DNA of 64,000 nt from the NCBI RefSeq assembly GCF_012844235.1, contig NZ_JABAGR010000001.1:310001-374000 (forward strand). Direction: 5' to 3'. Each line of letters starts with the position of its first letter. The first letter of the stretch is position 1. Under the pieces are notes generated by a model. That model was not told the DNA's origin, did not search any database, and saw nothing but the letters and a program-made list of their open reading frames with translations. Shown here piece by piece: positions 25,312 to 28,090 of the stretch. This DNA is from Parafannyhessea umbonata. GTDB lineage: Bacteria > Actinomycetota > Coriobacteriia > Coriobacteriales > Atopobiaceae. A program made the translations under genes and the position numbers.

Positions 25312-26249
25312 CTAGCTGCTGGAGCTGTCGTCGGACTTTATGGCATCCGGTATCTGAGTGCTCAGGAGCTGGATCTTCGAGCTTACGGTCGAGTCGGCCT
25401 CCTCGAACTTCTGGGTGTAGGTCGTGTAGCTCCCGGAAGGGTCGGTCGCGAGGCTGGCAAACGACTGGTACTCGGGGTAGAGGTCCTGCAGCGTATCGTA
25501 GGCGCTCTCGCAGTCGCTCGGCGGGTCGGTGAGTTCGCGCATGATGTCGTCGATCTTGTCGTTGCTGTCCTCGATGCTGCTCACGTACCCCTGATACTTC
25601 TCGCTCTCGTACAGCTTCTTGAGCGCGTCGTTGAAGTCGCTTGCCTGGTAGGGGCTCGTCTCGTCGTCCCACCCGCCGAAGATGGCGTCGTGCCACACGC
25701 CCGAGGTGAGGTTACACGCGGTCTCCGAGGTCACGGCACCGCCCATCATGTACCCGTACACCTTGTTGAGGTTCGAGACGTACTCGTCGTGCACGCGTAT
25801 CGCCTTCGCCTGCTCCTCTTGGCTCCTCTTCTTTGCGGCCTCCTTGCGCGCGACGGCTTCCTCGTGAGCGACCTGCTGGTTGTGCGATGCGACGGCGTAC
25901 CTGGCCCCAAGCAGGGCGACCACGGCCACGGCGACGGCCGCGATGAGATCCTGGTGCGGCGACGGCGCTTCCGCTCTTCCTCGGGGAGTGGCTCTCTCCC
26001 CGTGGACGCTGCCGCGGGCGCATCCCTGCCAGGGAAGGGCGGGGCGCCGGCGGAAGCCTTCGGATCTTCTCGCGCGTCGCCGGACGATGCACCTGCCTGG
26101 GCGGCAGCGGAGCCTGCCTGCGCTGCGTCTACCTGCGCGGCGTCGCGCGCGTGCGGCACGTAACCCACCTCGAAGACGTGGCCCGCGCTGGTCGTTGGCT
26201 TGGCGTCCCGGCTGCCAGAGGTGTGGTCGTTTTCCGTGTTAGAGCCCAT
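25312..26249 (-). pseudogene. Single-pass membrane protein interrupted by a frameshift
   Basis: The protein starts at 26249 (MGSNTENDHTS, with GGAGGA upstream) with an Ala-rich polar region ending in EEERKRRRR. Its hydrophobic helix (DLIAAVAVAVVALLGARYA) and the extracytoplasmic coiled-coil region down to DAIKSDDSSSS lie in a different frame. The switch falls between about 25948 and 25965. The two halves fit perfectly as one membrane-anchored protein of about 310 residues, so a one-base indel, real or a sequencing error, is likely. Function unknown; the ectodomain has regularly spaced charged helices. Confidence 0.65.
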
Positions 26250-26536: not shown

Positions 26537-28090
26537 ATGGCTCGAAAGATGACGGGACAGGAACGAGACGACGCGGAGGCGCTGCGCGGTGTCCTGGTGC
26601 AGGAGCTTGAGCCTGCGGACAGGGGCTATGCCCCCGGTATCGCGAGCGCGCTCGTTCGGCTTCCCGACGGGAGGGCTACGGCGAAGGACGTGGAGCGCAT
26701 CCTGGGCAAGTACAAGGTGAGCGCAAACGCCCTGAAGAAGATGATGCGCGCCGGCGTGCTGGTGCCATGCGCGGACGAGGACGGTGCGTATGACGTGTGC
26801 GTCCCTGCGCCCGCGGAGACGGATGCCGGCGAGTCCGGCGCGGAGGTGTCGGACGCCTCGTCGGATGACGCGGGCGCTTTGGCCGCGCAGGCGGACGACC
26901 CCGCGCCCGGGGCGGCGGGCGACGCAAGCGGGTCGCGCGAGGACGGGGCGCCCGATGCCGCGCCTTCGGACGGGCCCGCGGAAGGCGAGGCGGAAGGCGA
27001 CGCGGGGGAGGCCGCCTGCGCCGCGGACGCGCCCATGCCAGATGCGCCGGACGCAGGCGCCGAGCCTGCCTCCCCGATAGCCGCGCAGGCAGATGCCGCC
27101 GCGGGCGAGAAGGACGCGTCCGTCCAGCCCGAGGCCGAAGGCGAGGCCGATGCCGCGCCTTCCCCCGAGCCCGCGGACGGCGCGCGTTCCGGCAGGGCCG
27201 CCCGGCGCGGCGGCGCACGCCGTCGCGAGGCGTCGCGGCGCGACCTGAAGAAGGTACCGTACGTGCGCCGCGGCAACGAGTCCGACGCACAGGCGCGCCA
27301 GAGGATCGTGGCGCTTGACCCGCGCTTCTGGATGAACGGCTGGCTGCTGAGCCACCCCGGAGCCTTCACGATGTACGAGCGCGAGCTCACGGCCATAAAC
27401 GACGTGCTGACGGACGGCATGCTGCCCGGCGACATCACGCGGCGCCAGCTGGCGTACCAGATGGGCGGGGACGAGAAGTTCTTCGAGTACGGCAGCGACG
27501 GATTTCGCCTGCTGCGCGCCATGGGCATGGAGGACGTGGTGCGCCACAGGCCCATGCCGAAGCCGGACCTGGTGTACCACGCGCCGCGCCGCCGCAAGCA
27601 CATGCGCGTGCTGGTGACGGAGAACCTGGACCCCTACCTGGACGTGCACGACCTCATGTACGAGGACGGCCGCACGCAGATCCTGGGCGAGCGCGTGCAT
27701 GCCGTGGTGCTGGGCGGCGGCACGCCCGTGCTGGAGCACAACCGGCTGTCGCTTCTGCTGGACACGCTGGGCGCGGACTCCGTGGAGGTGCTGTACTGGG
27801 GCGACATCGACCGCGCGGGAGTGGACCTCATGATGAAGCTGCGCGCCGAGCTGGGCGAGAAGTACAAGTTCTCGTCCTTCTCGCCCGCGTATGGGCTCAT
27901 GGTACGGCGCGCGATGGAGCGCTTCCCGGACCCGACGGACAACGAGTCGACCGGCCAGGCGAACATAGACGTGCCGGACATGTCGCTGGTGTGCGAGGGG
28001 ATGAGCGCCGAGGAGGCGGACTACGCGCGCGCCGTGGTGGAGTCGTGCGGGCTCATTCCGCAGGAGATCCTGACGAAGCGCGACCTTTAG
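26537..28090 (+). CDS. Orphan JetD-like (DUF2220/Wadjet) Toprim protein with long Ala/Asp/Glu linker
   Basis: 517 residues from the ATG at 26537 (GGACGAGG upstream). An N-terminal winged-helix-like part (about 1-75) is joined by a 150-residue Ala/Asp/Glu/Pro low-complexity linker to a C-terminal DUF2220 domain (about 240-517). Toprim motifs of JetD are present: Glu in LVTENLDPYLD, the GGGTP turn near 390, and DxD in EVLYWGDIDRAG near 420. In Wadjet, JetD cleaves plasmid DNA with JetABC; none of JetA, JetB or JetC is in this window. Its role may be a stand-alone nuclease or topoisomerase-like function. The recurrent 13-mer occurs twice in it (27103-27115, 27874-27886). Confidence 0.8.
   Translation: MARKMTGQERDDAEALRGVLVQELEPADRGYAPGIASALVRLPDGRATAKDVERILGKYKVSANALKKMMRAGVLVPCADEDGAYDVCVPAPAETDAGESGAEVSDASSDDAGALAAQADDPAPGAAGDASGSREDGAPDAAPSDGPAEGEAEGDAGEAACAADAPMPDAPDAGAEPASPIAAQADAAAGEKDASVQPEAEGEADAAPSPEPADGARSGRAARRGGARRREASRRDLKKVPYVRRGNESDAQARQRIVALDPRFWMNGWLLSHPGAFTMYERELTAINDVLTDGMLPGDITRRQLAYQMGGDEKFFEYGSDGFRLLRAMGMEDVVRHRPMPKPDLVYHAPRRRKHMRVLVTENLDPYLDVHDLMYEDGRTQILGERVHAVVLGGGTPVLEHNRLSLLLDTLGADSVEVLYWGDIDRAGVDLMMKLRAELGEKYKFSSFSPAYGLMVRRAMERFPDPTDNESTGQANIDVPDMSLVCEGMSAEEADYARAVVESCGLIPQEILTKRDL
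27853..27886. repeat. Inverted pair of the GGGCGAGAAG motif inside the JetD-like gene
   Basis: GGGCGAGAAG at 27853-27862 and CTTCTCGCCC at 27877-27886 are perfect inverse copies separated by 14 bases. The right copy is part of the full 13-mer GTCCTTCTCGCCC (27874-27886). The pair lies in coding sequence and is read in different frames. Confidence 0.7.

What the first reader, a model, noticed from the sequence alone, without database searches (positions are those of the whole stretch)
26537..28090. Orphan JetD-like Toprim protein without JetABC
JetD is the nuclease subunit of the Wadjet anti-plasmid SMC system. This protein keeps the JetD Toprim pattern (TEN, GGGTP, YWGDID) but stands alone, with an N-terminal winged-helix-like part and a 150-residue acidic linker. 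Neighbours are unrelated. It could be a solitary nuclease, a repurposed regulator or a new defence effector with its own partner domain.
Basis: partly seen in the sequence, partly recalled or inferred. Interest (0 to 1): 0.65.

Follow-up and report, generated by a model that had tools for sequence, protein, structure and literature searches.

The report
Stand-alone JetD nuclease in Coriobacteriales
This gut-bacterium gene encodes a DNA-cutting enzyme of the kind that normally works inside the four-part Wadjet anti-plasmid machine, but here and in many related genera it exists alone, without the other three parts and with its active site intact, so these bacteria seem to have kept the blade and lost the motor.

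Summary
Window 26537-28090 (+) encodes a 517-aa protein: N-terminal winged helix (aa 1-90), disordered acidic linker (about 91-230) and a JetD-type CAP+Toprim core (232-517). The closest known kind is type III Wadjet JetD (PADLOC JetD3, E 3e-29). Catalytic positions E362, D423, D425 and P508-Q509-E510 are invariant in a 64-protein alignment; E362 and D423 correspond to MksG E236 and D279, needed for cleavage. The own genome (99.9% complete) has no JetA or JetB, and its JetC-like hit is housekeeping SMC. The wider picture is new: orphan copies occur across Atopobiaceae and in most sampled Collinsella. JetA was absent from 37 of 37 tested genomes with only orphan copies, and present in the three with a JetDABC operon. 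Neighbours differ between genera, but the place is stable within genera; phage records lack it, and both folded domains are under purifying selection (dN/dS 0.05 and 0.14; linker 0.70). Best reading: a vertically inherited, catalytically competent stand-alone JetD, targeted by its own tethered winged helix or an unlinked partner, probably for DNA maintenance rather than as a mobile defence module. Nuclease activity, dimerisation and role are inferred, not shown.

The parts
26537..28090 (+). Orphan JetD-like protein, 517 aa, stop TAG 28088-28090
26537..26806 (+). N-terminal winged helix with two preceding helices (aa 1-90); invariant M1, E9, A36, S37, L39, R41 in 22 orthologues
   Evidence: AF2 pLDDT about 95; Foldseek to DpnI, STK19 and CodY winged helices; hhalign to type III JetD N-termini prob 78
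26807..27226 (+). Disordered, Ala/Asp/Glu-rich linker (about aa 91-230)
   Evidence: AF2 pLDDT below 50; net charge -23; dN/dS 0.70
27230..27571 (+). CAP-like helical region (about aa 232-345), with conserved E313/K314
   Evidence: Foldseek of the core to topoisomerase VI-A
27599..28087 (+). Toprim domain (about aa 355-517)
   Evidence: Pfam JetD_C
27620..27622 (+). Catalytic Glu E362 (TEN); aligns with MksG E236
   Evidence: PMC10123090
27803..27811 (+). D423-I-D425 (DxD); D423 aligns with MksG D279
   Evidence: PMC10123090
28058..28066 (+). Invariant P508-Q509-E510 C-terminal motif

Best explanation
A stand-alone descendant of the type III Wadjet nuclease JetD, uncoupled from JetABC and now inherited as a chromosomal gene in Coriobacteriales. 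Proposed mechanism: a homodimer through the Toprim domain cuts double-stranded DNA with Mg2+ or Mn2+ bound by E362, D423 and D425 (and perhaps E510). The CAP region guards the DNA cleft, as in JetD and MksG. The N-terminal winged helix, tethered by a long disordered linker, replaces the SMC loop extruder as the targeting part, by binding DNA or an unlinked partner. Most likely role: chromosome or DNA maintenance, meaning cutting bent, aberrant or extrachromosomal DNA. Shown: domain layout by sequence and confident model, intact active-site residues, absence of JetABC, purifying selection, wide and stable distribution. Inferred: nuclease activity, dimer, autoinhibition, targeting and biological role.
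For: JetD3/JetD_C profile matches. AF2 winged helix + disordered linker + CAP-Toprim core; topoisomerase VI-A is the top PDB fold match of the core. E/DxD/PQE invariant in 64 proteins including divergent Collinsella copies. Own genome without JetA, JetB or JetC. JetA profile hits only the 3 genomes with canonical JetDABC operons and none of 37 with orphan copies only. Orphan or canonical copies in 92 of 333 Coriobacteriia genomes of at least 90% completeness. A 35-member clade holding the window is made only of orphans, SH-aLRT 100. Collinsella synteny (cstA, jetD, peptidoglycan-binding gene) conserved. Not in phages; the only 'plasmid' match is a 0.9-Mb Collinsella record with housekeeping genes. 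dN/dS 0.05 winged helix, 0.14 core, 0.70 linker. MksG alone is a divalent-cation-dependent nuclease (PMC10123090).
Against: No experiment. JetD alone is reported to cut only at artificially high concentration and is thought to be autoinhibited (PMC10586767), so an unaided copy might be inactive in vivo. Foldseek E-values are weak (best 0.0099). The orphan/canonical split is not firmly rooted. The maintenance role rests on distribution alone. Presence is patchy outside the main genera.
Confidence: 0.6

Rival explanations
1. A one-protein (or unlinked-partner) anti-plasmid or anti-phage nuclease: the JetD blade still clears foreign DNA, triggered by its own winged helix.
For: Origin in a defence system; DpnI winged helix among the best fold matches of the N-terminus; a protein-kinase gene with PD-T4-6-type hits near the Thermophilibacter copies.
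Against: Frequent and syntenic within Collinsella and other genera, unlike typical patchy defence genes; no defence hits among the window neighbours tested; no phage copies. The winged-helix and kinase matches are generic.
Confidence: 0.22
2. It works in trans with the resident Smc-ScpAB (or another coiled-coil ATPase), re-creating a Wadjet-like loop-extruding nuclease from housekeeping parts.
For: JetD normally works on an SMC motor; a housekeeping SMC is present; the long linker could tether to a foreign complex (inference).
Against: No direct evidence. SbcC, one candidate, is absent from many genomes with the orphan. SMC is too universal to be informative.
Confidence: 0.13
3. A remnant or non-catalytic regulator left after loss of JetABC.
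For: It is an orphan; the linker evolves fast.
Against: Strong purifying selection on both folded domains, catalytic residues invariant over large divergence, no internal stop in any matched copy.
Confidence: 0.04
4. A complete JetABC lies elsewhere in the genome.
For: 27-contig draft, so a gap is possible.
Against: 99.94% complete; negative with two Pfam JetA families, the JetB family, a JetA profile and the JetC3 profile; positive controls detected in three relatives.
Confidence: 0.01

Closest known systems
Wadjet type III JetD (PADLOC JetD3; Pfam JetD_C PF09983)
   Same: CAP+Toprim core, catalytic E/DxD/PQE, N-terminal winged helix
   Different: No JetA/B/C in the genome, not in a JetDABC operon, extended winged helix, 30-460-aa disordered linker inserted in most members
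MksG of Corynebacterium glutamicum MksBEFG
   Same: Toprim nuclease; E236 and D279 align with E362 and D423; MksG cuts DNA alone in vitro
   Different: MksG is encoded and acts with MksBEF; only short local sequence similarity to this protein
Topoisomerase VI-A / Spo11
   Same: CAP-Toprim fold (top PDB fold match of the core)
   Different: By analogy with JetD/MksG the catalytic Tyr is expected to be missing from the CAP domain (not tested by superposition); no ATPase B subunit seen
OLD-family / GajA Toprim nucleases
   Same: Toprim endonuclease used in defence
   Different: No fused ABC ATPase domain here; CAP-type architecture

Membership tests
JetD protein family (JetD_C / JetD3) | Significant JetD profile match | tested here: met
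   27.2 bits against cut-off 22; E 3.3e-29
JetD protein family (JetD_C / JetD3) | Toprim catalytic Glu and DxD | tested here: met
   E362, D423, D425 invariant in 64 proteins; mapped to MksG E236/D279
JetD protein family (JetD_C / JetD3) | N-terminal winged helix homologous to JetD3 | tested here: inconclusive
   hhalign prob 78, E 1.8e-5 in a single comparison over 44 columns
JetD protein family (JetD_C / JetD3) | Homodimer and metal-dependent DNA cleavage | not testable with these tools
   needs biochemistry
Wadjet system (JetABCD) | JetA, JetB and JetC encoded with JetD | tested here: not met
   absent from locus and genome
Wadjet system (JetABCD) | Restricts plasmids | not testable with these tools
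   needs a transformation assay
Topoisomerase VI-A / Spo11 | CAP-Toprim fold | tested here: inconclusive
   best PDB match 9o7o, E 0.0099, prob 0.89, low TM-score 0.34; suggestive only
Topoisomerase VI-A / Spo11 | Catalytic Tyr in CAP domain | tested here: inconclusive
   No invariant Tyr in the CAP region of the 64-protein alignment; the only invariant Tyr are Y420 and Y452 in Toprim. No structural superposition was made.

The most novel reading that the evidence does not exclude
Coriobacteriales have domesticated a Wadjet nuclease: a JetD freed from its SMC motor has become a core, vertically inherited chromosomal enzyme with its own targeting domain (winged helix on a flexible tether), serving DNA maintenance either alone or with the housekeeping SMC complex.
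Probability: 0.45. Interest if true: 0.75.

Novelty: new variant of a known kind. Interest (0 to 1): 0.52.

Why it matters
JetD is treated as the strictly controlled blade of Wadjet, harmless until the SMC motor finishes extruding a plasmid. The literature consulted mentions the reverse loss (MksBEF without JetD, PMC10586767), but no lasting JetD without JetABC turned up in the searched papers. Much of a bacterial order keeping the nuclease without the motor raises a direct question, how such a nuclease is restrained and aimed, and offers a natural single-protein system for studying JetD. It also affects annotation: PADLOC JetD hits in these genomes do not mean Wadjet, and the C. aerofaciens copy is labelled 'hypothetical protein'. 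Collinsella and Olsenella are common gut bacteria.

Tried and rejected
SbcC as obligate partner: rejected, absent from many genomes carrying the orphan. JetC3 hit in the own genome: turned out to be housekeeping SMC. Bacillota relatives looked like further orphans at first because no large ORF lay nearby; nearly all are JetD-JetA-JetB operons with JetC presumably running off the locus. The 137-aa gene after jetD in Tractidigestivibacter looked like a partner but is an ArsC/Spx-like gene (my reading of the sequence) lying several kb away in Thermophilibacter. The 'plasmid' hit is a 0.9-Mb Collinsella record with housekeeping genes. phmmer to PDB gave nothing useful, and the profile search gave only a weak MksG hit. 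NCBIfam: no family. A sigma-70-type promoter scan found none. An AU test does not reject a single orphaning event (p 0.15), so the number of events is unresolved.

Full report
OBSERVATION. Window 26537-28090 (+) is an intact 517-aa gene. Its first residues (MARKMT) are conserved in orthologues, fixing the start. Pfam JetD_C scores 27.2 bits, above its cut-off of 22. PADLOC JetD3, the type III Wadjet nuclease, matches aa 250-517 with E 3.3e-29. NCBIfam has no family for it.

ANATOMY. AlphaFold2 on a 64-protein alignment gives a winged helix at aa 1-90 (pLDDT about 95), a disordered segment at about 91-230 (below 50), and a core at 232-517 that is mostly above 90. The winged helix resembles those of DpnI, STK19 and CodY. 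That is a generic fold match and not a functional assignment. It is weakly alignable with the N-terminus of canonical type III JetD (hhalign prob 78) and better with the Collinsella orphan N-terminus (prob 92). Canonical type III JetD has essentially no linker; the orphans mostly have 30-460 residues there. The core model's best PDB match is topoisomerase VI-A (E 0.0099, prob 0.89), as expected for a CAP-Toprim protein, though the score is moderate.

ACTIVE SITE. Across 64 JetD-like proteins, orphan and canonical, the invariant columns include K314, E362, N363, G422, D423, D425, P508, Q509 and E510. The profile alignment to the MksG structure 8b7f places E362 and D423 on MksG E236 and D279, using one constant offset for the SUMO fusion (offset worked out by me). 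Alanine at either MksG position drastically impairs cleavage, and MksG cuts DNA without MksBEF (PMC10123090). So catalytic competence is likely, but activity here is not shown.

NO JetABC. In the own genome (99.94% complete) there is no Pfam JetA, DUF3375 or DUF4194/JetB, and no JetA by protein or profile. The weak JetC3 hit (21.9 bits) lies in the housekeeping SMC, and the SbcC_Walker_B hit is SbcC. The JetA profile finds JetA in 3 of 40 relatives, exactly those with a JetDABC operon, and in none of the 37 with orphan copies only. G063 carries both a canonical operon (L031) and an orphan copy (L036).

DISTRIBUTION. With E at most 1e-6, 92 of 333 Coriobacteriia genomes of at least 90% completeness have a match. 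These include all three members of the window's genus searched, all eight of genus g34 (Tractidigestivibacter/Olsenella by contig match) and 32 Collinsella genomes. Genus g38 is taken as Collinsella because a contig of G204 has the length of C. aerofaciens record NZ_OY725717. Relatives outside Coriobacteriia found in the genome-contig scan are nearly all canonical Bacillota JetD-JetA-JetB operons. In the tree, the window falls in a 35-member clade of orphans only (SH-aLRT 100). Collinsella orphans form a second group, and g30/g35 orphans a third. A single orphaning event is not rejected (p-AU 0.15), and rooting is unresolved.

CONTEXT AND SELECTION. Neighbours change between genera. In the window, the flanking genes are divergent and convergent, so the gene is alone in its transcription unit by layout. 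Within genera the place is stable: cstA, jetD, peptidoglycan-binding gene in Collinsella, and the same flanks in G000 and G055. Phage records have no match. The single plasmid record with a match is 0.9 Mb and carries tsaD and other housekeeping genes. Between G000 and G055, dN/dS is 0.05 (winged helix), 0.14 (core) and 0.70 (linker): two constrained domains joined by a nearly free tether.

MECHANISM. From JetD/MksG biochemistry, the protein most likely dimerises through Toprim and makes metal-dependent breaks. In Wadjet, JetABC supplies targeting and is thought to relieve autoinhibition, and JetD alone cuts only at artificially high concentration (PMC10586767). Here targeting must come from elsewhere; the tethered winged helix is the obvious candidate (inference). 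Core-like distribution argues for chromosome or DNA maintenance, but does not exclude a resident barrier to foreign DNA. SbcC is ruled out as an obligate partner. Housekeeping SMC is possible but untested.

NOVELTY. It is a member of the JetD protein family but not of the Wadjet system: a defining feature (JetABC) was tested and not met. Searches of the open-access library found no description of lasting JetD orphans; most subscription papers and all preprints are outside that library, so priority cannot be claimed. I rate it a new variant of a known kind.

Noticed in passing
window 25312-26249 (-): The divergent gene upstream is frameshifted relative to an intact 299-aa homologue in the same genus (L041 10525-11424); either a recent frameshift or an assembly error.
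   Followed up: partly
L051 10832-13537, L052 6727-9302, L060 6961-9151 and similar Thermophilibacter loci: A protein-kinase-like gene (PADLOC PD-T4-6-type hits, E about 1e-33) and a small 142-aa companion gene lie next to the orphan jetD in this genus only.
   Followed up: partly
L032, L033, L040: Another orphan JetD lineage, without linker, lies just downstream of a PcrA/UvrD helicase gene with conserved surroundings in three genomes; the pairing recalls Gabija GajA-GajB and was not followed up.
   Followed up: no
NZ_OY725717.1 (C. aerofaciens, 899,693 bp): Record labelled 'plasmid 6' carries tsaD and other housekeeping genes, so it may be a piece of the chromosome; the orphan JetD on it is annotated 'hypothetical protein' (WP_195568736.1).
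   Followed up: partly
G063 (L031 and L036): One genome holds both a canonical type III Wadjet operon and an orphan JetD, a natural test for separate functions.
   Followed up: no
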